DNA of 64,000 bases from NCBI RefSeq assembly GCF_001263175.1, contig NZ_CP012332.1, positions 1,361,501 to 1,425,500 on the forward strand. Reading direction: 5' to 3'. Below the pieces are notes generated by a model. It did not search any database and was not told the DNA's origin. It saw nothing but the letters and a program-made list of their open reading frames with translations. This document shows, in pieces, positions 40,858-56,020 of the stretch. Source of the stretch: Vulgatibacter incomptus. GTDB lineage: Bacteria > Myxococcota > Myxococcia > Myxococcales > Vulgatibacteraceae. Each line of letters starts with the position of its first letter. Position 1 is the stretch's first letter. Position numbers and translations under genes: made by a program.

Positions 40858-40936
<79 letters not shown>

Positions 40937-41002: not shown

Positions 41003-41023
41003 CGTCCACACTCTATCCACACT
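41003..41023 (+). promoter_or_regulatory. Arm-like repeat, left end
   Basis: 21-bp sequence containing two TCCACACT direct repeats, just upstream of the integrase ribosome site. The same 21 bp occur at 55868-55888 near the right end. Position and duplication fit integrase or excisionase arm-type sites. Confidence 0.6.
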
Positions 41024-41037
41024 TGGGAGGAACGGGG

Positions 41038-42108
41038 ATGGTCCAGGACGCAAAGCGGGAGCCGTGGGAAGGCGGGTTCATTCGGGAGACGGGCTCCGGC
41101 AAGGTCTACGTGATCCGCAAGAGGATCGGCGGCAGGCTGTTCGAGGTTTCGACGCGATGCGCCACACTCAAGGCGGCAATGTCGGAACTCGCCCGGTTCG
41201 AGGCTGACCCCCAGACGTACTAGCCCGGTGGACCCACCCGACCGGATCCGGTCTATCTCACCGTGGAACTCGGCAAGGCGTTCCTTGACTGGTCGGTCAA
41301 GGTCAAGGGCAACACGGAACGGTGGGTCAAGAACAAGGCGGCGCACCTGGAATGGTGGCGAGTCCACTTGAAGGGGATCGACCTTCGGAACGCGCCAATC
41401 GAGAAGATCGAAAAGCCGCTCGTTGGCGCAACCTCGGTCATGCACCGGATCGAAACGATCAAGTCCTTCTACTCCTGGTTGATCACGGTCGAACGGAAGT
41501 TGAAGCCGAACGAGGATCCCACCTTCCGCACCCTCAAGGTTCCCCAGGCGAAGCCCGCACAGTTGTCGAAGGTGAAGGCGACCACGCAAGCCGATTACCT
41601 TGAGGTTCGCGCGAAGCTCATTGCCCATATCGACGACAGAGGGCCAGGGAATCGCCCTCTGTTCTCCCAGGAGTGGATCGACGCTCTAGACGTGCTGGCT
41701 GGAACCGGCTGGCACGTGACGGAGCTTGAACGCTTCGCCGATGGAGGAGTGATCGACCATCGGGAAGCAGAGGGGATCGCGGGCGTCCTGGTCTGTCCTC
41801 GGACGAAGGGCGGCGTTCCCCTCCGAACCGCTGTGTCCGCGACTGTGCTTGAGGCTGCAACGCGGATCCGAGAGAAGGGCAGCTTCAAGGGCGATGCCCT
41901 CCGAACGGCGTTGCAGCGTGCGTGCAAGCGGCTCGGGATTCCCCAGGTCAACCCCGGATCATTCCGGCATTCGGTCGCAACGCACGCCATCGGGGCTGGC
42001 GCCGAAGCTGGCGCGGCAGCCGACTTCCTTGGGCACAGGTCGGAGGCGACTACAAAGCGCTTCTACGCGACCCACGCAACGCCTGCGAAGGTGCCGACGT
42101 TGATTTAG
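41038..42108 (+). pseudogene. int: Divergent tyrosine integrase interrupted by an amber codon
   Basis: Start ATG 41038 with GGGAGG. A single frame runs to 42108 except for TAG at 41221-41223, after residue 61. The N-terminal part (Tyr-Val-Ile-Arg-Lys-Arg-Ile-Gly-Gly) and the part after the stop together make a normal ~356-residue integrase. The core has Gly-His-Arg-Ser, Phe-Arg-His-Ser-Val-Ala-Thr and nucleophile Tyr in Lys-Arg-Phe-Tyr-Ala-Thr-His. At the box I Arg position it reads Thr-Gly-Trp-His, and the usual HxxR His is Gly, features I associate with myxobacterial tRNA integrases. A restart at GTG near 41263 would lack the arm-binding domain. Confidence 0.85.
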
Positions 42109-42259: not shown

Positions 42260-42838
42260 ATGGACCTATCTACGGTACTCGGCGCGCTTGCTTCCTCTAG
42301 TCTCCTTGGTGCCTTCGTTGGTCATGTCCTGACGGAGCGAAGGCGTGCAGATCCACTCGCACTCCTGCTTCGCCAACGCCAGCATGACGCTTGCCAGGAG
42401 ATCGTCATAGTGGCCAGCCGTGCCAGCCGGGCGCTCTCCATGTGGTATTGGCGTGGGGAAGGAGAGAACATCTCTTCCTTGCTGGACTCACTCACTCTCG
42501 TAAGGGCCAAGCATGTGACGGTCATCCCGCCTTCGGTGTTCCCCTCGCTGAACGCCTTTCAGCGCGCTTGCGTTGATTCATCCGTCTTCGTGCCCACGAC
42601 AAGTGCAACGACTAAGCATCAGGTCCAAGCCGCGCAGGAAACCTCGAACCAGATCCATGGTCTCTTGATGGAGGTGGTTGCTTCTATGCGCCTGGCTCTC
42701 CAGACTGACAACGGAACAAAGCTCGCGAATGAAATTCTGGACCCGCGATCATTTCTCGAGCGCCTAGAGTCCAAGATGAATGCCGCTCAAGGAGAAGTGA
42801 ACCACATGAACATGGATCCCAGAGCCCCGGAAGCTTGA
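42260..42838 (+). CDS. Small membrane protein, island paralogue A
   Basis: 192 residues. One N-terminal membrane segment (about 5-24), then Arg-Arg-Ala-Asp-Pro-Leu-Ala-Leu-Leu-Leu-Arg-Gln-Arg-Gln and Ala-Cys-Gln-Glu-Ile-Val, followed by a helical cytoplasmic part with Val-Arg-Ala-Lys-His-Val-Thr-Val-Ile-Pro-Pro-Ser-Val-Phe and a later Asp-Asn-Gly-Thr-Lys-Leu-Ala-Asn-Glu-Ile. The same blocks occur in the two following genes, with low overall identity. No known domain recognised. It overlaps or abuts gene B. Lower GC than the core genome. Confidence 0.8.
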   Translation: MDLSTVLGALASSSLLGAFVGHVLTERRRADPLALLLRQRQHDACQEIVIVASRASRALSMWYWRGEGENISSLLDSLTLVRAKHVTVIPPSVFPSLNAFQRACVDSSVFVPTTSATTKHQVQAAQETSNQIHGLLMEVVASMRLALQTDNGTKLANEILDPRSFLERLESKMNAAQGEVNHMNMDPRAPEA

Positions 42839-42846
42839 ATCAGCCT

Positions 42847-43470
42847 ATGGACTACGACCAGATAGCTCTAGCCACTCTTGCCGCATCGCTCATTAGCGCC
42901 CTTGCTGCCGTTAAGGCATCAAACACTGCCGCCAAAATCGCCCAGAGGAGCGCCGCATCTGCTCTTGAAGTAGCGAAAGCTCAACGAGGGGATCCAATTG
43001 CCCTCCACATTCGCCAACGCCAGATCGCTGCCTGTCAGGAGCTTTTGACGAAAGCCGTTATTGCGACCCGCCTTATTGTTGCTGACGGAGCCACCAAGGA
43101 CGATTTGAGCAGATGCCAAATCGCGCTAGATGGGGTCGAGATCGTCAGGGTCAAGCACATTGCCTTACTCCCGTCCGAGGTCTTAGACGCCTGCTCTAAG
43201 TATTCGAGCGCGCATATGCAGGCTTTTGTGTTTCTCTGGTGGAGGGTTGAGAACAAGGAGCCCAAGGATTCGGTATTCTGGGATGCGTATAATGGGCATA
43301 TGGAAACGATGGGAACGGCGAGAGACGAGCTTGTGAACGTCGTTCGCTTGTCCGTTCAAGCTGACAAAGCTGCAAAGGTCGCGAGCGAGCTTATTGAGGC
43401 CAAGCCGCTTCTTGCAGAGCAGGTTGATGGTCCAAGCGGGAACAAGCCGCGGTCCCTGGAGGCGGTGTGA
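42847..43470 (+). CDS. Small membrane protein, island paralogue B
   Basis: 207 residues from ATG 42847; a TTG at 42835 overlapping the stop of gene A is also possible. N-terminal membrane segment, a short charged stretch, then Arg-Gly-Asp-Pro-Ile-Ala-Leu-His-Ile-Arg-Gln-Arg-Gln and Ala-Ala-Cys-Gln-Glu-Leu-Leu. The Arg-Val-Lys-His-Ile-Ala-Leu-Leu-Pro-Ser-Glu-Val block and Gln-Ala-Asp-Lys-Ala-Ala-Lys-Val-Ala match A and C. Spacing suggests cotranscription with A. Function unknown. Confidence 0.78.
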   Translation: MDYDQIALATLAASLISALAAVKASNTAAKIAQRSAASALEVAKAQRGDPIALHIRQRQIAACQELLTKAVIATRLIVADGATKDDLSRCQIALDGVEIVRVKHIALLPSEVLDACSKYSSAHMQAFVFLWWRVENKEPKDSVFWDAYNGHMETMGTARDELVNVVRLSVQADKAAKVASELIEAKPLLAEQVDGPSGNKPRSLEAV

Positions 43471-43931
43471 GGAAGTCGCGGAATAGGCGAATTCCCATCT
43501 AGCCTAATCCTCTAAGGCTCCTCCCTGCTGATTTCGGCCTCCGGAATCGCCCCAGGATCGACGAACGAGGGCATCCGAAGGGTAAGGGTACGGGTCGCCC
43601 TCTCGTCGTTCCTGGAGCCTCCTGCTTCGTCGGCGGGATCCGGCGATCAAAACCGATGACTCGGCGCCAGATCCGATGACGAACCCGCGTCTCGGCGCAG
43701 ATCCGTTTACGAAACCGCATACAGAAAAAGGAATTCTCATGGAGTCGATGGCGTGTCTGGCGGTATTGGTGTGTATTGCCACACGTTGTTCGCGGCTCTT
43801 TCCCAAGTGAATAGCGAAGAAAAATTGAAAGCCTCCAACCCTGGCGCTTTTACCGGCGACGGGAAGGAGGCTCTTAGTTTGGGTCGGTGGGGAACGTGCC
43901 TTGGTCCGCTACCTAGGGTAGAGTAGGGGCC
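43471..43931. other. 460-bp gap with a micro-ORF and hairpin
   Basis: Between paralogues B and C. No long gene. It contains a 23-codon hydrophobic open frame with a good ribosome site (43739-43810), listed separately. An imperfect inverted repeat follows at about 43829-43873 (AGCCTCC ... GGAGGCT). Confidence 0.5.
43739..43810 (+). CDS. Possible 23-residue hydrophobic peptide
   Basis: ATG preceded by AAAGGA at 7-8 bp. The peptide has a short hydrophobic core (Met-Ala-Cys-Leu-Ala-Val-Leu-Val-Cys-Ile-Ala) followed by basic residues and Phe-Pro-Lys, like membrane microproteins or type I toxins. A hairpin lies about 20 bp downstream. It could be chance; no homologue known to me. Confidence 0.25.
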   Translation: MESMACLAVLVCIATRCSRLFPK

Positions 43932-44513
43932 ATGGACTTCATCAAATCGGCTGCCGAAATCTTCCTGACGCCCACCCTGTCGGTTCTGGCGCTGGTTCTC
44001 ACCCAGCTATGGATGGACAGTCGGAGAGGCGATCCATTCACGCTGCAACTGCGTGCCCTCCAGATCGAGGCGTGCCAAGAGATCGTCCGAACCGCCTATT
44101 TGACGGAGGTTCCCGAAGTCTTAGAAGCCCAAGCCATTAGGGGCAAAATGCTTGACGAACTTTTGGCTCTTGAGGATGTGCGGATAAAGCACGCGGCGAT
44201 CCTTCCGGCTTCCGTCTTCCTTGCACTATATGACCTTCAAGAAGTCAAGGCTCAAGCATGGTCTGCCACAAGAGCAAGCCAGGAAGCGGACGAAGAGGAT
44301 CGAGCCTCCTTTCGCATAGAGGAAAGAAACGCGCATCGGAGGGTTTCAGAAAAACGAGGCGCACTCATTGAAACGATACGAACAGAGATTAGGACCGACC
44401 ATGGAACCCGGCGCGCAAATGACGCAATCGATCCGCCTCCCATTCTGGAAAAGGTCCGAGAAATTCTCAAGCGAGGAAACGAATTGAAAAAGCCCGCATC
44501 CCCAGCCGCATAG
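43932..44513 (+). CDS. Small membrane protein, island paralogue C
   Basis: 193 residues. N-terminal membrane segment (about 10-27), Arg-Arg-Gly-Asp-Pro-Phe-Thr-Leu-Gln-Leu-Arg-Ala-Leu-Gln and Glu-Ala-Cys-Gln-Glu-Ile-Val, then Val-Arg-Ile-Lys-His-Ala-Ala-Ile-Leu-Pro-Ala-Ser-Val-Phe, and a C-terminal Thr-Asp-His-Gly-Thr-Arg-Arg-Ala-Asn block. Same layout as A and B; the middle helical part is more charged. Separated from B by 460 bp with its own start region. Function unknown. Confidence 0.8.
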   Translation: MDFIKSAAEIFLTPTLSVLALVLTQLWMDSRRGDPFTLQLRALQIEACQEIVRTAYLTEVPEVLEAQAIRGKMLDELLALEDVRIKHAAILPASVFLALYDLQEVKAQAWSATRASQEADEEDRASFRIEERNAHRRVSEKRGALIETIRTEIRTDHGTRRANDAIDPPPILEKVREILKRGNELKKPASPAA

Positions 44514-44654
44514 TCTGCTAGTTGGGTGCTCTCTTCTTGCGCCGTTTCTTCCGGGCTGCCTTGCGCCAAGACGCGAGGGACGGAACAACGAGCCGGAACC
44601 AAGCCCACGGCGCGAGCAACCCGGCTGCCATTGCCTTACTGCGGGTTCCGGCCT

Positions 44655-44720
44655 ATGTCGATCACCGATACCGGTCGAAGCTGATCACCGATTCCGGAGC
44701 ATGCCGATCACCGATTCCAT
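44655..44720. repeat. IS21-like left-end repeats (relic)
   Basis: Three copies of a GATCACCGAT-CCGG type motif about 20-25 bp apart, immediately left of the IS481 element. Similar motifs in inverted orientation lie at 46113-46160, right of it. Spaced terminal repeats like these are typical of IS21-family ends; no istA or istB remains between them. Confidence 0.45.
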
Positions 44721-44737
44721 GGTAACGCCCGGGTTAA

Positions 44738-46093
44738 TAGGTGACAGTTGGTCCGGGCGACATCGGTTACAGCTGCCCGACCCAGATAGGTGACACGATC
44801 TCTTTGAGCCGCTTTGATCGCTCTCCGAAGGGAGAATCGATCATGTGGAAGGAGCGTACACGCGTGGACGAGCGAGTTCAGCTGGTCAGTGAATACCTGA
44901 AGGGCGTCCAATCCATGACCGCGATCTGTCGAGGTTTCGGAGTTAGTCGAAAGACCGCGTACAAGTGGGTCTCTCGATACCAAGCAGATGGCCCGGGTGG
45001 GCTCGAGGATCGGTCCCGGGCGCCACTTTCCCACCCGAGCCGAATCGAACCCATGGTCGTTGAGGCTCTTCTCACGGTTCGTCGTGCTCACCCGCACTGG
45101 GGCCCCCGGAAGATCCTCGCCTGGCTGGGCAGAAAGCAGCCGCAGCTGGCGCTCCCATCGGCCAGCACAGGAAGCGCGATCCTGGCAAAGTACGGACTCG
45201 CTCGGTCACGCCAGGCGCGCAGGCGCACGCCACCGTTCACGGATCCATTCGCCGATGCGGACGCCCCCAACCGCATTTGGTGTGCCGACTTCAAAGGTGA
45301 TTTCAAGAAGGGAGACGGCAAGCGTTGCTACCCGGTGACGTTTACTGATGGCATCAGTCGGTACCTGCTGAAATGCAGGGCCCTCCGGAGCACCAAGCGG
45401 ATTGGTGTCCAACCGGTCTTCGAAGCAGCCTTCCATGAGTTCGGTCTACCGGATCGAATCCGGACTGACAATGGTACGCCGTTCGCCAGCCGGGGAGCTG
45501 GAGGTCTTTCGCAGCTTTCGGTTTGGTGGGTGAAGCTCGGCATCTGCCATGAGCGCATTGAGCCAGGCCGCCCGGATCAGAACGGTCGGCACGAACGTAT
45601 GCACCGCACGCTCAAGCAGGAGACCATCTCCCCAGCAGCTCCTACGTTTCGGGCCCAGCAAGCGAGATTCGACCGGTTCCAACGAGAATACAACGAAGAG
45701 CGTCCACACGAGGCTCTGGGGAATGCCCCTCCATCGTCGTCCTACGTCGTTTCGCCCCGCTCGTACCCTAGTCGGCTGCCGGAGATTCACTACAGGGATG
45801 GTCTGAAGGTACGCAAGGTCGCTGCAAGCGGTCGGATGCGATGGAATGGCGCCATGGTCACAATCGGCCACGCCCTGGAGGGAGAATGGATCGGGCTGGA
45901 AGAAGCCGATGGTTTGCACCACGTCTACTTTGGCAACGTAAACCTAGGATTCATCGACGACCAGCGACCTAGCTTAGGCCTGATCCGGCCTCCAACGAAG
46001 TGCTGGGCGAGAGTGAAGTAGTAGCTGTTCGAACCGTGTCACCCATCTCAGTCGGGCAGGTGTCACCCATCTAGCTGGGCCAGACTGTTACCC
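44738..46093 (+). mobile_element. IS481-family insertion sequence
   Basis: 1.36 kb. Imperfect inverted ends over about 60 bp: the left begins TAGGTGACAG and the reverse complement of the right begins TGGGTAACAG. Both ends contain three spaced GGTGACA or GGTTACA boxes that probably bind transposase. One transposase gene fills the element. No target duplication could be identified. Confidence 0.8.
44843..46021 (+). CDS. IS481-family transposase
   Basis: 392 residues. N-terminal HTH (Met-Thr-Ala-Ile-Cys-Arg-Gly-Phe-Gly-Val-Ser-Arg-Lys-Thr-Ala-Tyr-Lys-Trp). The DDE domain has Trp-Cys-Ala-Asp-Phe-Lys-Gly, Arg-Thr-Asp-Asn-Gly-Thr-Pro-Phe and Arg-Pro-Asp-Gln-Asn-Gly-Arg-His-Glu-Arg-Met. The end includes Glu-Arg-Pro-His-Glu-Ala-Leu. 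ATG 44843 has GAAGGGAG upstream. The gene is uninterrupted, so this copy may be active. Confidence 0.92.
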   Translation: MWKERTRVDERVQLVSEYLKGVQSMTAICRGFGVSRKTAYKWVSRYQADGPGGLEDRSRAPLSHPSRIEPMVVEALLTVRRAHPHWGPRKILAWLGRKQPQLALPSASTGSAILAKYGLARSRQARRRTPPFTDPFADADAPNRIWCADFKGDFKKGDGKRCYPVTFTDGISRYLLKCRALRSTKRIGVQPVFEAAFHEFGLPDRIRTDNGTPFASRGAGGLSQLSVWWVKLGICHERIEPGRPDQNGRHERMHRTLKQETISPAAPTFRAQQARFDRFQREYNEERPHEALGNAPPSSSYVVSPRSYPSRLPEIHYRDGLKVRKVAASGRMRWNGAMVTIGHALEGEWIGLEEADGLHHVYFGNVNLGFIDDQRPSLGLIRPPTKCWARVK

Positions 46094-46178
46094 ATGTACC
46101 CTCTTGCACACCGGAACAGGTGATCGGCTTGCGTCGGAACAGGCGATCGGCATCGCCGGAATCCGCAGTCTTGGTCGG

Positions 46179-48108: not shown

Positions 48109-48951
48109 CTAAGTTCCCTCTGGTGGTGCGTCGGGATCTTGACGCGCGAGTTCCCTCCTCGCCCGTTCAGCCTCCCAGAATGGATCTTTGCGCCTTGGGT
48201 AAATGAACGACAGAGCGCCCCGGAATTGGGAGGTGCAGTAGATTTCGAGGCCCGGAACCTGCTTCTTCGCGGATTTGAAACGCTTTCCGAGAATTCGCGC
48301 CCTAGTCTTTGTGGTCCGTCCCTGTACGTCCTTGGTGTGTACCTCGACAACTACCCCGTATTTTGAGAGGTACGGAACCAGCCCCAAGATATCGTCCGCA
48401 ATGAAGAGGGCAGACGCCGATTCCCTCTCTCCTCCTGGGATTCGCAGGTCGAATGAAGGGGTGGCGCCTAGTTTTTCAAGCTCAATAAACCGGGTGAGCC
48501 AGACGGGCTTGATTTTCACGTCGTCGCCCATCCGTTCTATTGGCGGGTGTGGCAACGTGCCCATGGGAATCCAACTCGACCAAAGGCTGAGTTTGCCGAT
48601 GCCGCCGAGCCAGTACCTTAGCTCGAAGCGGTCAAACAAGATCTCCCGCTCGCTCGGATTTGCCACCTCGATTTCAATGAGGAACGCAAAGCGGCGGAAG
48701 TTCACGTCGGCAATCGGCAGCTTGGTCCACCAGGACATTTCGGCTTCGACTCGGAGGCGGGGCTTGCCGCCGATACGCGCTGCGAATGATCGGATGATTC
48801 CCACTCCCCAGAGCCCGAACGCTCCGATTGCGCCGAGTAGGCCAATGCCGTGGGGATACTGCTCTCCAAGGGCGAGAACCGCGATGAACCACTCCCAGAT
48901 GGTTCCGCAGATTCGTCCCGGTAGACCGACCCATGAAAGCCACTCGATCAT
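48109..48951 (-). CDS. Membrane protein of unknown function
   Basis: 280 residues from ATG 48951 with GGGAG upstream. Two hydrophobic segments near the N-terminus (about 15-30 and 37-58), then a soluble beta-rich region and a basic C-terminus with Pro-Arg-Arg-Lys-Asp-Pro-Phe-Trp. No family recognised. The IS3 element begins 34 bp upstream of its start codon, so its own promoter may have been displaced. Confidence 0.75.
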   Translation of the reverse strand: MIEWLSWVGLPGRICGTIWEWFIAVLALGEQYPHGIGLLGAIGAFGLWGVGIIRSFAARIGGKPRLRVEAEMSWWTKLPIADVNFRRFAFLIEIEVANPSEREILFDRFELRYWLGGIGKLSLWSSWIPMGTLPHPPIERMGDDVKIKPVWLTRFIELEKLGATPSFDLRIPGGERESASALFIADDILGLVPYLSKYGVVVEVHTKDVQGRTTKTRARILGKRFKSAKKQVPGLEIYCTSQFRGALSFIYPRRKDPFWEAERARRELARQDPDAPPEGT

Positions 48952-49010
48952 TCTTTCTCCCTCTGGGCAGGAGCGGGCGGTGAGTGTCAACATAGTTGTC
49001 GCCTCCCCGG

Positions 49011-50015
49011 TCATGCGGCCGCGGTCCTCTCTGGCGTGAGCCTTACGTGCTGAATGCGAGACCAGTTTCTCGTAGAACCGCTCCAGCGTTCGGGCCATCG
49101 CTCGCGCGCAGCCGCATAGACGCCAGCACGCTTCTCGAGAATCGCGAGGTCCTGTCCGGCATGGCGCTGCGCGGGAGTCACAAACCGGATTCCACTGTGG
49201 AGGTGCGTCGCGTTGTACCAAGCGACGAAACTCTCGACCCAGGCACGTGCCACGGCGAGCGAGGCGAACGGCCTCGACGGGAAGTCAGGCCGATACTTCA
49301 TCGTGCGGAAGTGCGCCTCCGCGAACGCGTTGTCGTTGCTCACCCGGGGGCGGCTGAACGACGGGACGACGCCGAGCACCTGAAGCGTGGCCTGCAAGGT
49401 CGAGCCTTTCATCGCCGCGCCGTTGTCGGCGTGGAACACCATGCCGTTCGGATTGACGTCCAAACGCCGGCAGGCCTCGACGAAGAGCTCCTTCGCAAGC
49501 TCCTCGGACTCGACGTCGTGCACGGCCCAGCCAACTACCTTCCGACTTCAGAGATCGAGGATCGTGTAGAGGCGAAAGAACATGCCGCGAATCGGTCCCC
49601 GCAGATACGTGATGTCCCAAACCCAGACCTGGTTCGGCCCGGTGGCGACATGCTCAGGCCGCTTGCGACGCATCGGAGGCCGCGACGCCTGCCGGTGCTT
49701 CAGAAGCTTTTCCCTGCGGAGCAAGCGGTAGATCGTCGCCTCGGAAGCGACGTAGATGCCTTCATCCGCAAGGAGCGGAACGATCTGCGCGGGCGACAAA
49801 TCCCGGAACTTGGGCGAGGTTACGAGCGCGAGAATCCTCTGCTGCTCGGCCTCGCTGAGCTTGTTTCGCGGCGCCGTCAGCGGCCCACATCGGAGATCGT
49901 CCTCGGCTCCTGCGCGCCATCGCTGCACCGACCGAGCGCTCAAGCCAATCTCCTCGCAGGCTCTCTCGAATCTTGCGCCGCTGACGACAGCCTCGTCGAG
50001 GAGCTCGAGGATCAT
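49011..50015 (-). pseudogene. IS3 transposase orfB with in-frame opal stop
   Basis: Starts at ATG 50015, overlapping orfA by ATGA. DDE integrase core: Val-Trp-Val-Trp-Asp-Ile-Thr-Tyr-Leu (first Asp), Phe-His-Ala-Asp-Asn-Gly-Ala (second Asp), and Val-Ser-Asn-Asp-Asn-Ala-Phe-Ala-Glu (Glu). TGA at 49548-49550 interrupts the segment Leu-Asp-Leu-stop-Ser-Arg-Lys-Val-Val-Gly-Trp, where relatives usually have Trp or Phe. The frame is otherwise intact to 49011. Confidence 0.88.
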
Positions 50016-50530
50016 CTTCCGCTCTTCCCGTCTGTGTCGTCGTCCTCGTCCCCCCAGATCTCCTGCACTTTTTTTTTGAGGACGAGGAGCGCGGCGGTCT
50101 CCGCGAGCGCCTTCTCCTTACGCCTGAGCTCGCGCTCGAGCTCGCGAACCCGCTTCGCATCAGGCCCAACAGAACGACGCGCTGCTGCGCTCCCAAGGCT
50201 AGCGACGGCAGTTGCGCGCCACTCATCGAGCTGGGCTTTGTGCAGTCCCTTCTGGCGGAGGTACGAGCCGAGCTCGTCATCACTCAAGCTCGCTGTCTCG
50301 ATCAGGACCTGCAGCTTTTCCTCGCTGGTCCACTGGCGGGTGCTCTTGTCGTCGCGGTCGTCCATCTTGACGCCGAGCCTACCCGCATCCAGCAGCCAAC
50401 GGGAGAGCGTCGCCTGGGCAATCCCGGACTGCCTTGCAAGCGCAGTCGCCGACATCGCGTGCGGCCCCGTAAGCTTCTCCACCATCTTCGCCTTGAACCC
50501 CTCGGAGTACGGAGTCCGACCCATCTCCAA
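50012..50530 (-). CDS. IS3 transposase orfA
   Basis: 172 residues. HTH with Met-Ser-Ala-Thr-Ala-Leu-Ala-Arg-Gln-Ser-Gly-Ile-Ala-Gln-Ala-Thr-Leu-Ser, then a long coiled coil ending near Leu-Lys-Lys-Lys-Val-Gln. A run of nine A residues (coding strand) encodes that Lys stretch and could be the slippery site used for OrfAB frameshifting in IS3 elements. Confidence 0.85.
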   Translation of the reverse strand: MEMGRTPYSEGFKAKMVEKLTGPHAMSATALARQSGIAQATLSRWLLDAGRLGVKMDDRDDKSTRQWTSEEKLQVLIETASLSDDELGSYLRQKGLHKAQLDEWRATAVASLGSAAARRSVGPDAKRVRELERELRRKEKALAETAALLVLKKKVQEIWGDEDDDTDGKSGR

Positions 50531-50827: not shown

Positions 50828-51760
50828 ATGGCAACATCTCATCTACCACCATCCACCCAAGCAGTCCTTACCTACGTCTCTTCCAACCTCAATCACTACG
50901 GCTACTGCACTTCCACCAATGACCAGATCGCAGAGGCGCTAGGAATCGCCGCAATCACGGTCAAGAAGGCGCTTCAACGACTCGTTGATGCAAAGACTCT
51001 CTACTCCTTCCCGGACGGCAGGGGCCGGAAGCTCTCGCTTGTGTCCCATCCTTCGCTTGATCTGGATGGCTTGGCCCTTCGGCTTGTTCGGCTCATGCGC
51101 CGCTATCGGGGCGCCAAGGGTGAGCCGTTCTTTTGGTCGCGGGAGAAGGTCGCCGCCTCGCTCGGGATCGGGAAGAACGCTGTTGCAGGCGTCTACGAAG
51201 CAGCGAAGGCGAACGGCTGGATCGTGTGCAAGACGATCAACGTAACCTATCAGGGCGTTGAGAGAACTCGAGTTGGCTGGATGGTGACTTCCAAGGGCGA
51301 GCAGGAGGCGCTAGGAACGACGAACGCCAAGCCCGCCGCAACGGTACAGGCGAAGCCGGAAAGCGCCCCAGAGAAGCAGGCAGGCGCCAGGGAGGGCATG
51401 TCCGCTCCGGTGGAGGCGAAGAAGCCCGCGCACCCTTGGGACAATCCCGACATTTATAACGCTCTCCTTGCCGCTTCCGAAGATGTTGAGTCGTCCTTCG
51501 CTTCGCCAGCGCCTCCCGCTCCTACTCTCCTGGATGCAGCCAAGGAAGTAGCGCGCGAGCTTGCAGAGGTAGCAGCGGAAGCCAAGCCGGAGCAGGGGAG
51601 CAAGATCACCATCGCTCTTATCGAGTGGGACGCGAAGTGGAACACCAGAGAGCGATTTGAAGCAGCGGATGCATTGAACGCCGAAGAGGAAGCCGCCCTT
51701 GTGGACGATGAAGACGTCTACGTTGGCGATTACGATTCCAACGGCCATTGGAACCAGTAG
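50828..51760 (+). CDS. Winged-helix DNA-binding protein, replication-like
   Basis: 310 residues. Residues 1-75 form a winged helix (Thr-Asn-Asp-Gln-Ile-Ala-Glu-Ala-Leu-Gly-Ile-Ala-Ala-Ile-Thr-Val-Lys-Lys) and residues 80-150 may be a second one (Ser-Arg-Glu-Lys-Val-Ala-Ala-Ser-Leu-Gly-Ile-Gly-Lys-Asn-Ala-Val). A low-complexity Ala/Pro/Glu linker and an acidic tail follow. Tandem wHTH proteins are common replication or regulatory proteins of phages and islands; which applies here is unknown. AAGGAG precedes the ATG. Confidence 0.75.
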   Translation: MATSHLPPSTQAVLTYVSSNLNHYGYCTSTNDQIAEALGIAAITVKKALQRLVDAKTLYSFPDGRGRKLSLVSHPSLDLDGLALRLVRLMRRYRGAKGEPFFWSREKVAASLGIGKNAVAGVYEAAKANGWIVCKTINVTYQGVERTRVGWMVTSKGEQEALGTTNAKPAATVQAKPESAPEKQAGAREGMSAPVEAKKPAHPWDNPDIYNALLAASEDVESSFASPAPPAPTLLDAAKEVARELAEVAAEAKPEQGSKITIALIEWDAKWNTRERFEAADALNAEEEAALVDDEDVYVGDYDSNGHWNQ

Positions 51761-52879: not shown

Positions 52880-53386
52880 GTGGAATTTCAACTATCGAGA
52901 GACGACGTAGAAAACTTTTGGAGCAAGGTGGAGATTCGCGGAGAGGATGACTGCTGGAACTGGCGTGCCTCCACCAATGAGGACGGATATGGACAGTTCG
53001 GGATCTGGAGAGGAAAGCAGCAAAAGAACTTTAGGGCGCATCGTCTTGCTTGGAGTCTAGATAGCCAATGCGACATTCCAAGCGGGCTCGTTGTTCGCCA
53101 CAAGTGCGATAATCCGCCGTGCCGCAACCCGAAGCATCTGGTTCCGGGAACTCATGAAGAGAACATGCGGGATATGACGGATCGGAAGCGAAACGCTTTC
53201 GGGGTGAAGAACGGTTCGGCAAAGCTTTCGGATGATGAGGCTAGACAGGTCTTTGAGCTTAGTTGGAGTGGAACGGCAACCCAGTGGGAGATCGCAAGAC
53301 GGTTTGGGGTTTCCCAATTTATGGTGAGCACGATCAAGAACGGCAAGAACTGGATGCACTTGTTGCCAGTGGAGCAGACGCCATGA
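52880..53386 (+). CDS. HNH endonuclease with C-terminal HTH, copy 1
   Basis: 168 residues, GTG start with AAGGAG. Residues 20-50 form an AP2/HNH_3-type entry (Cys-Trp-Asn-Trp-Arg-Ala ... Gly-Tyr-Gly-Gln-Phe). The HNH core is Ala-His-Arg-Leu-Ala-Trp, Val-Val-Arg-His-Lys-Cys-Asp-Asn-Pro-Pro-Cys, Asn-Pro-Lys-His-Leu. Residues 118-160 are an HTH (Trp-Glu-Ile-Ala-Arg-Arg-Phe-Gly-Val-Ser-Gln). This architecture is typical of free-standing phage homing endonucleases. Its stop overlaps a small downstream frame by ATGA. Confidence 0.87.
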   Translation: MEFQLSRDDVENFWSKVEIRGEDDCWNWRASTNEDGYGQFGIWRGKQQKNFRAHRLAWSLDSQCDIPSGLVVRHKCDNPPCRNPKHLVPGTHEENMRDMTDRKRNAFGVKNGSAKLSDDEARQVFELSWSGTATQWEIARRFGVSQFMVSTIKNGKNWMHLLPVEQTP

Positions 53387-53700: not shown

Positions 53701-54045
53701 ATGCGAGACTTGAAGTTCAAGGTATTGGTCGGGCTGATGCTGACGGCTGCTGTTGGTCTGTCTGGCTGTGAGGCGGACGATAAGGACAAGCCCGAGTTGG
53801 AGCGGCGGATCTCGGAGATCGGCGCCACATTCGACGGAGGCCGGTTCTTCAACGTCTCTGTGACAGCAGAGGAGACGCAAGCCACCTGCATTTTCGCGAA
53901 GTCCACTGTTTGGACCAGCAGCGGTTACAAGGCAGGAGGCTACCATAAGACGCGTTCCATGACGGAACGCGCAATGGATATTGGGAAGACCTTGAATATG
54001 CAGTGCCGGAACGATGATCTCCGGGAGAAGTTGAGAGACAGATAG
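53701..54045 (+). CDS. Small lipoprotein, island paralogue 1
   Basis: 114 residues. Signal ends Gly-Leu-Ser-Gly-Cys. Mature part starts Glu-Leu-Glu-Arg-Arg-Ile-Ser-Glu and holds Thr-Gln-Ala-Thr-Cys, Gly-Tyr-Lys and a late Cys that probably pair. Same plan as the lipoprotein at 54441. GGAGGG before the ATG. Function unknown. Confidence 0.8.
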   Translation: MRDLKFKVLVGLMLTAAVGLSGCEADDKDKPELERRISEIGATFDGGRFFNVSVTAEETQATCIFAKSTVWTSSGYKAGGYHKTRSMTERAMDIGKTLNMQCRNDDLREKLRDR

Positions 54046-54090: not shown

Positions 54091-54444
54091 ATGAAGAAGC
54101 GGACTAAGGAGCAGACTCATCGGGCCACTCACTTGGCGAACCTTCTCCTCGTAATCGAGGAGTGCTCTCCGATCCATGGGGATGAGTTGAGGGAACGCGC
54201 TGCGATTCCCGACGTGAAGTGGCATGGCGTTGCGATGGCGGACGCCTTCAATAATGGCTTTCTCACCGTGAACCCGGAGAGGGATCGCGCTGATCCCGGT
54301 ACGCTGTTCATTCTCACTATGGAGGGAAAGGGCTTTATCAATCTCTCCGAAGACGAGAGGAAGGCTTTCCCGCTGAACTTCGATCTATCGAAGTACGAGC
54401 CGCCTTGCCCGGACGAGCGAGAAGGAAAGGACGCGGACGCATGA
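54091..54444 (+). CDS. Possible winged-helix island protein
   Basis: 117 residues. Asp-Glu-Leu-Arg-Glu-Arg-Ala-Ala-Ile-Pro and Val-Ala-Met-Ala-Asp-Ala-Phe-Asn-Asn-Gly-Phe suggest a winged-helix fold, but no family match is certain. AAGGAG before the ATG; it overlaps the next lipoprotein by 4 bp (ATGA). Confidence 0.7.
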   Translation: MKKRTKEQTHRATHLANLLLVIEECSPIHGDELRERAAIPDVKWHGVAMADAFNNGFLTVNPERDRADPGTLFILTMEGKGFINLSEDERKAFPLNFDLSKYEPPCPDEREGKDADA

Positions 54445-54818
54445 AGAAGACGATTATCGCGATGGTCCTTGGCGCTGTCCTGGCGGGCTGCAATGGAGCA
54501 GGGAACAAAGCTGAGTTGGAACGTCGGATCTCGGAACTGTCATCGAAGGTGGCGAATGTCGAGGTTCACGAGAACAGTACGCAAGCAACCTGCCGCGCGT
54601 CAGCGACCATCGTTTCCCATGACGGAGGCTATGGACCAAACGGCTACAAGATGGATGGGACGACTTCCGTAAAGGCAGCTGAGATCGCGCGCATGTTGGA
54701 TCTCAAATGCACGACGGAGGGCCTTCTCGACGAAGTGCGACGCAAGAGAATTGAACAGGGCCTTCCCGACACTCCGATTACCGTTGATTCTCCTCCGCTG
54801 GGTATTCGGCGGTATTGA
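54441..54818 (+). CDS. Small lipoprotein, island paralogue 2
   Basis: 125 residues. Signal ends Val-Leu-Ala-Gly-Cys. Shares Glu-Leu-Glu-Arg-Arg-Ile-Ser-Glu, Thr-Gln-Ala-Thr-Cys, two Gly-Tyr pairs and a late Cys with the lipoprotein at 53701, with a longer C-terminal tail. ATG 54441 overlaps the previous stop. Function unknown. Confidence 0.8.
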   Translation: MKKTIIAMVLGAVLAGCNGAGNKAELERRISELSSKVANVEVHENSTQATCRASATIVSHDGGYGPNGYKMDGTTSVKAAEIARMLDLKCTTEGLLDEVRRKRIEQGLPDTPITVDSPPLGIRRY

Positions 54819-54940: not shown

Positions 54941-55435
54941 ATGAAGCCAAAATTTGGAAGACCGATAGGGACACTATCAGGAGAAGATATCGAACGGTTC
55001 TGGGCCAAAGTTGATATTCGGTCTGACGATCTGTGTTGGGAATGGAAGGCAAGTCGAAATATTGACGACTACGGACAATTCTCTCTAGGCGGAAAGCCTC
55101 GTCGGGCAAACAGGGTCGCTTGGTCAATTGCCTACCATGCGGACATTCCGACCGGATTGGTGTTCCGACATAAATGCGACAACCCGCCGTGCTGCAACCC
55201 GAGCCACCTTGAGATCGGGACCACGTTCGATAACACAATCGATATGACGAAGCGGGGCAGGGCATCACATTTGAGGCTCCTGGGGGCAGACGTATTGGAG
55301 ATTCGACGCCTCTACGCTAGTTCCACCATGACCCAAAAGGAGATCGCCAATCTGTTCGGAGTGGATCAATCCACAATCAGCAACGTCACTACGGGAAGAA
55401 GGTGGCGCCCTCTATTGGAGGGGCCGACGCCATGA
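54941..55435 (+). CDS. HNH endonuclease with C-terminal HTH, copy 2
   Basis: 164 residues, clearly related to the protein at 52880: Phe-Trp-Ala-Lys-Val-Asp-Ile-Arg, Cys-Trp-Glu-Trp-Lys-Ala, Phe-Arg-His-Lys-Cys-Asn-type HNH core with Asp-Asn-Pro-Pro-Cys and Asn-Pro-Ser-His-Leu. The HTH is Gln-Lys-Glu-Ile-Ala-Asn-Leu-Phe-Gly-Val-Asp-Gln-Ser-Thr-Ile-Ser. The stop overlaps the excisionase-like gene by ATGA, the same coupling seen in copy 1. Confidence 0.87.
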   Translation: MKPKFGRPIGTLSGEDIERFWAKVDIRSDDLCWEWKASRNIDDYGQFSLGGKPRRANRVAWSIAYHADIPTGLVFRHKCDNPPCCNPSHLEIGTTFDNTIDMTKRGRASHLRLLGADVLEIRRLYASSTMTQKEIANLFGVDQSTISNVTTGRRWRPLLEGPTP

Positions 55436-55867: not shown

Positions 55868-55888
55868 CGTCCACACTCTATCCACACT
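55868..55888 (+). promoter_or_regulatory. Arm-like repeat, right end
   Basis: Exact 21-bp copy of 41003-41023 with two TCCACACT repeats, 85 bp inside the right core repeat. Confidence 0.6.
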
Positions 55889-55973: not shown

Positions 55974-56020
55974 TTCCTAAACCGTAGGCCACAGGTTCGA
56001 GTCCTGTTGGGGCCGCCAAA
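55974..56020 (+). repeat. attR, 47-bp core repeat
   Basis: Identical to 40890-40936, i.e. the 3' part of tRNA-Arg(CCU) from the anticodon loop through CCA. The tRNA 5' half is absent, so this marks the far end of the island. Confidence 0.92.

What the first reader, a model, noticed from the sequence alone, without database searches (positions are those of the whole stretch)
42260..44513. Three diverged paralogous membrane proteins as island cargo, possible undescribed system
Seen: genes at 42260, 42847 and 43932 each encode about 190-207 residues. Each has one N-terminal membrane segment, then an Arg-Gly/Ala-Asp-Pro...Leu-Arg...Gln...Ala-Cys-Gln-Glu block, a Val-Arg-x-Lys-His...Pro-x-x-Val block and a late Asp-x-Gly-x-x-x-Ala-type block. 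Their middles differ strongly. Inference: three versions kept side by side in the first cargo position of a tRNA island suggests either an oligomeric membrane complex or diversified specificity, such as superinfection exclusion, an effector, or a sensor set. I know of no named family that fits.
Basis: partly seen in the sequence, partly recalled or inferred. Interest (0 to 1): 0.65.

Follow-up and report, generated by a model that had tools for sequence, protein, structure and literature searches.

The report
Orphan membrane-protein trio in tRNA island
Three anciently diverged copies of a small protein, probably anchored in the membrane and unlike any protein found in the databases searched, sit beside the integrase of a decaying mobile island in what is probably a myxobacterium; they are real genes, but their job is unknown and a role in conflict with phages or rivals is only an inference.

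Summary
Genes 42260-42838, 42847-43470 and 43932-44513 encode true paralogues: 28-29% identity, similarity 17-25 s.d. above shuffles, 30 invariant columns. Synonymous sites look close to saturated, so the copies are old and the shared residues selected. They lie just inside a 15.1-kb island in tRNA-Arg(CCT), with 47-bp att repeats (40890-40936, 55974-56020), an integrase interrupted by an in-frame TAG, and an excisionase-like gene at the far end. No relative was found in Pfam, PHROGs, NCBIfam, PADLOC, PDB sequences, phages, plasmids, IMG/VR, scans of 84,980 species, or about 1,770 whole genomes. AlphaFold models of two copies give one N-terminal helix (likely membrane) plus four helices, at low confidence, without a significant fold match. 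Best guess: membrane-anchored, cytosol-facing cargo for phage or mobile-element conflict (about 0.35). Orphan immunity proteins or element-maintenance factors remain open.

The parts
40858..40934 (+). tRNA-Arg(CCT), integration target
   Evidence: ARAGORN
40890..40936 (+). attL: 3' end of the tRNA, 47-bp direct repeat
   Evidence: 100% identical to 55974-56020
41003..41023 (.). 21-bp repeat, likely integrase arm site (near end)
   Evidence: exact copy at 55868-55888
41023..42108 (+). tyrosine integrase, interrupted by an in-frame TAG at 41221-41223 between its arm-binding part and the rest
   Evidence: PF00589 E 3.3e-8; TAG; relatives have one open frame across this point
42260..42838 (+). P1, paralogue 1 (192 aa): N-terminal hydrophobic helix plus helical domain
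42847..43470 (+). P2, paralogue 2 (207 aa), almost abutting P1
43932..44513 (+). P3, paralogue 3 (193 aa), after a 461-bp spacer that is single-copy in the genome
55402..55788 (+). excisionase-like HTH protein, last gene of the island
   Evidence: TIGR01764 E 3.2e-6, 27.4 bits against a cut-off of 28.8; phrog_66
55868..55888 (.). 21-bp repeat, likely integrase arm site (far end)
55974..56020 (+). attR, 47-bp direct repeat of the tRNA 3' end

Best explanation
P1-P3 are an orphan protein family carried as integrase-adjacent cargo of a tRNA-Arg island. SHOWN: common ancestry, old divergence with about 30 residues kept in all three, position next to the integrase inside the att repeats, base composition unlike the flanking genes. 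PREDICTED: each has one N-terminal hydrophobic helix followed (P1, P3) by basic residues, so by the positive-inside rule the C-terminal four-helix domain faces the cytoplasm; a conserved polar strip on helix A (R41, Q44, C48 in P3), beside the V-R-x-K-H turn, faces the bundle or a partner and would be a binding or assembly surface. INFERRED: they act at the inner membrane in conflict between mobile elements (hindering incoming phage or element DNA, or sensing infection), the divergent middle segments setting target range or pairing.
For: Real paralogues under protein-level constraint. Island and att sites. Same predicted helix order in two independent models. Related integrases in the phylum have different cargo in the same slot, including IetAS in one locus, a CAP12/Pycsar-type TIR effector in one, and PLD, NYN, DUF3800 and RHS proteins. 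Published integrase-side hotspots of prophages hold defence genes (PMC9122126). A protein of like architecture, Redi gp32, lies in the integrase-side variable region of a temperate phage whose relatives' genes there are implicated in prophage defence.
Against: No match to any PADLOC family and no recognisable enzymatic or nucleotide-binding motif. Most cargo in related islands is not recognisable defence either. The Redi match is not significant (E 0.046) and has no sequence similarity. Models are low confidence (mean pLDDT about 64). Other diverged paralogue sets in the island make the trio less special.
Confidence: 0.35

Rival explanations
1. Orphan immunity proteins: each paralogue neutralises a different toxin delivered by rival bacteria at the inner face of the membrane. 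The diverged middles match diverged toxins, and the toxin genes are absent.
For: Diverged small paralogues without a toxin neighbour, on a mobile element, in a lineage rich in antagonism (own knowledge). Orphan immunity genes are described, some in acquired interbacterial defence systems (PMC10470768, PMC12247911; abstracts). Helical-bundle immunity proteins exist (own knowledge).
Against: No Pfam immunity-family match. No polymorphic-toxin gene was recognised among the island genes searched. Most immunity proteins are not single-pass membrane anchored.
Confidence: 0.2
2. Element-maintenance or exclusion complex: the three form a hetero-oligomer at the membrane that keeps or protects the island itself (stability, exclusion of a second copy, attachment of replication).
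For: P1 and P2 nearly abut on the same strand next to the integrase. The island carries a replication-initiator-like gene (50828-51760). Conserved helix-A face.
Against: P3 is separated by 461 bp. Related islands with related integrases lack the family, so it is not a core function of this integrase type. Co-folding could not be tested.
Confidence: 0.2
3. Leftover orphan genes with no present function: an old duplicated cargo family surviving in a decaying island.
For: Integrase interrupted by TAG, IS insertions and a split IS3-type transposase, other duplicated genes in the island, no clear promoter or terminator signals.
Against: All three frames remain open, and about 30 residues are invariant although synonymous sites are near saturation, so they were selected for most of their history.
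Confidence: 0.15
4. Inner-membrane spanins or other phage lysis accessories left by a prophage.
For: One N-terminal hydrophobic segment and a helical remainder; a phage-type HNH gene and a small coiled-coil/membrane ORF lie nearby.
Against: Basic residues after the segment (ERRR, SRR) favour a cytoplasmic C-terminus, opposite to a spanin; three copies sit next to the integrase and not in a lysis cassette; no PHROG lysis match.
Confidence: 0.05

Closest known systems
Mycobacterium phage Redi gp32 (AEN79925.1), integrase-side central variable region of cluster N phages
   Same: 185 aa, N-terminal hydrophobic helix then a helical domain, orphan-like (8 phage records only), encoded on the integrase side of a temperate phage; best viral fold match of the P1 model.
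   Different: No sequence similarity (hhalign probability 0.2%); fold E-value 0.046 is not significant; single copy; its own function untested as far as I found.
Haemophilus phage HP1 orf1 (P51700 / AAB09183.1), next to int
   Same: About 200 aa, membrane-anchored, integrase-adjacent; appears among the weak fold matches of P3.
   Different: Two hydrophobic segments by inspection, no sequence similarity.
Cargo hotspots beside integrases in prophages and islands (PMC9122126)
   Same: Variable cargo beside an integrase, with some defence genes; seen here too in related myxobacterial loci.
   Different: P1-P3 match no known system and no recurrence was found.
SLATT-type membrane effectors
   Same: Small membrane-anchored proteins with a helical cytosolic part.
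   Different: SLATT has two membrane helices and usually a nucleotide- or RT-linked partner (own knowledge); here there is one helix, no such partner recognised, and no Pfam or PADLOC match.

Membership tests
Known anti-phage defence families (PADLOC-DB) | match to a family profile | tested here: not met
   only BrxC at E 0.037, a weak partial match for P1; none for P2 and P3
Superinfection-exclusion proteins | membrane location | tested here: inconclusive
   one N-terminal hydrophobic segment, hydropathy 1.74-1.93, marginal
Superinfection-exclusion proteins | blocks phage DNA entry or adsorption | not testable with these tools
   needs phage assays
SLATT membrane effectors | two N-terminal membrane helices | tested here: not met
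   only one segment above threshold near the N-terminus; one helix there in the models
Histidine phosphotransfer (HPt) four-helix domains | HxxKG phosphorylation motif | tested here: not met
   invariant His is in V-R-x-K-H followed by P five residues on; no HxxKG; HPt folds appear only as non-significant Foldseek hits
Inner-membrane spanins | N-in, C-periplasmic topology | tested here: inconclusive
   basic residues after the segment in P1 and P3 favour the opposite (sequence); not measured
Immunity protein families (Pfam) | match to an Imm family profile | tested here: not met
   no Imm family up to E 1
Integrative tRNA island | direct repeat of the tRNA 3' end at both ends | tested here: met
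   47 bp, 100%
Integrative tRNA island | tyrosine integrase next to the tRNA | tested here: met
   PF00589; interrupted by TAG, so probably no longer active

The most novel reading that the evidence does not exclude
P1, P2 and P3 form a mixed membrane-bound complex, a new kind of exclusion or sensing module in which the conserved R..Q..ACQE / VRxKH face is shared and the divergent middles read different invaders.
Probability: 0.1. Interest if true: 0.65.

Novelty: new member of a known kind. Interest (0 to 1): 0.32.

Why it matters
If they act in conflict between mobile elements, they would be a family that current profile libraries cannot see, in a lineage and integrase family where few systems are described. 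As it stands the value is a well-defined orphan family (three sequences, about 30 invariant residues, a likely fold and topology) that can be tested directly, and a caution that paralogue sets are a habit of this island and not by themselves evidence of a special system.

Tried and rejected
Profile libraries (Pfam, PHROGs, NCBIfam, PADLOC): nothing credible; TFIIE_alpha at E 0.0044 for P3 alone is below its cut-off. PDB sequence profile: only cytochrome b562 at E 0.15 or worse. tblastn of all three proteins against phages and plasmids: no match. IMG/VR by profile peptides, P2 peptides and a degenerate DNA pattern of the D-P..R..Q..A-C/Y-Q-E block: chance hits only. Same pattern in 84,980 species: 36 hits, none a relative; profile peptides there: none confirmed. 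Whole-genome profile searches in the own phylum and five other groups: weak hits inspected or judged chance (an HflK-type protein, unrelated frames, two short stretches with stops). HP1 orf1 as a homologue: rejected. Recent duplication: rejected by near-saturated synonymous sites. A repeated element in the P2-P3 spacer: single copy in the genome. Literature searches on small single-TM exclusion proteins: nothing specific.

Full report
What was checked. The three ORFs are present as described. P1 is 42260-42838 (192 aa), P2 is 42847-43470 (207 aa; all three begin Met-Asp if ATG 42847 is used), P3 is 43932-44513 (193 aa). Local alignment scores exceed shuffled sequences by 17 to 25 standard deviations, and 30 alignment columns are invariant. 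The whole single-contig genome (4,350,553 bp) has no fourth copy. At residues shared by two copies, codons agree about as often as codon usage alone predicts (23/50, 19/52, 18/49 against 17.1, 17.7, 17.0), the P1-P2 pair slightly more often. The duplications are therefore old, and the shared residues were kept by selection on protein.

The setting. ARAGORN finds tRNA-Arg(CCT) at 40858-40934. Its last 45 bases plus 2 recur exactly at 55974-56020, and a 21-bp repeat occurs just inside both ends (41003 and 55868), as expected for att cores and integrase arm sites. The integrase (PF00589) follows the tRNA, and an excisionase-like gene (TIGR01764 slightly below its cut-off) is the last gene before the distal repeat. 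The island is 15.1 kb, 53-65% GC in 1-kb windows against 66-72% in three flanking genes. The integrase has an in-frame TAG between its arm-binding part and the rest; eight relatives have N, C, S, R or K at that point in one open frame. With an IS481-type element downstream of P3 and a split IS3-type transposase, the element looks immobilised and decaying, while P1-P3 stay open.

What the proteins look like. Each has one hydrophobic N-terminal segment (mean hydropathy 1.74-1.93 over 19 residues), followed in P1 and P3 by ERRR or SRR, which favours a cytoplasmic C-terminal domain. AlphaFold models of P3 and P1 from the three-sequence alignment give the same order: N-terminal helix, then four helices (35-57, 72-86, 93-118, 124-154 in P3), mean pLDDT about 64 with most bundle helices above 70. 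The conserved blocks fall on the first bundle helix and around the turn after the second. On helix A the invariant R41, Q44 and C48 lie on the hydrophobic side, which suggests a buried polar site or a contact surface; this is a prediction on a low-confidence model.

Relatives. None were found in four profile libraries, PDB sequences and folds, viral predicted folds, 50,697 phage and 72,556 plasmid records, IMG/VR, 84,980 species genomes by peptide and DNA pattern, or about 1,770 whole genomes by profile. Weak hits that were inspected look like chance. The pattern scans need the Q-x-x-A-C/Y-Q-E block and would miss relatives that lost it, and the genome sets are samples; absence means rare or unsampled, not unique.

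Integrase relatives as a control on context. Relatives of the integrase (best matches 43-54% identical) occur in 41 of 195 phylum genomes. Twenty regions were fetched; in 12 a tRNA lies just upstream of the integrase. None carries P1-P3. The genes that follow the integrase differ from locus to locus. Among 50 such proteins, one locus has IetA and IetS at full strength, one protein is a CAP12/Pycsar-type TIR effector, and others are PLD, NYN, DUF3800 or RHS-repeat proteins. The slot is a cargo position with some conflict genes, comparable to published hotspots beside the integrase in P2-related Vibrionaceae phages and a Bacillus prophage (PMC9122126).

An architectural lead. The best viral fold match of P1 is Mycobacterium phage Redi gp32 (E 0.046, not significant). 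It too has an N-terminal hydrophobic helix and a helical rest, is 185 aa, and is encoded on the integrase side of the central variable region. [quoted passage not shown] Redi's central region is shared with Nenae and ShrimpFriedEgg (PMC6544188). There is no sequence relation. This shows only that small single-pass helical proteins occur in such slots.

How special is the trio? The same island has two more diverged paralogue sets: HNH+HTH proteins at 52880-53386 and 54941-55435 (47%) and lipoproteins at 53701-54045 and 54441-54818 (32%). Keeping diverged duplicates is a habit of this island, which lowers the weight of 'three side by side' as evidence for an oligomer or a specificity set.

Verdict. 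A real, old, selected orphan family in a real island; function unproven. I commit to membrane-anchored conflict cargo as most likely (about 0.35), ahead of orphan immunity proteins (0.2), a maintenance or exclusion complex (0.2), functionless leftovers (0.15) and lysis accessories (0.05). Interest is modest: a clean orphan family worth a simple expression test, not evidence of a new system.

Noticed in passing
41221-41223: In-frame TAG splits the island integrase between arm-binding and core parts; eight relatives have sense codons there, so the island is probably no longer mobile on its own.
   Followed up: partly
52880-53386 and 54941-55435: Two diverged HNH+HTH endonuclease paralogues (47% identity) in the same island.
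   Followed up: partly
53701-54045 and 54441-54818: Two diverged small lipoprotein paralogues (32% identity) with an ELERRISE motif, flanked by the HNH pair; possible surface or exclusion proteins.
   Followed up: partly
44638-46169: IS481-type element (44731-46101, 67-nt inverted ends at 75%) lies inside an older pair of inverted, internally repeated ends (44638-44718 and 46110-46169): nested insertion sequences.
   Followed up: no
48109-49221 (-): 322-370 aa membrane-associated protein with no match in any library searched; another orphan in the island.
   Followed up: no
49011-50530 (-): IS3-type transposase with its second frame split into two ORFs.
   Followed up: no
L084:2854-6295: Complete IetAS defence pair shortly after a related integrase beside a tRNA-Asn in another genome of the phylum.
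   Followed up: partly
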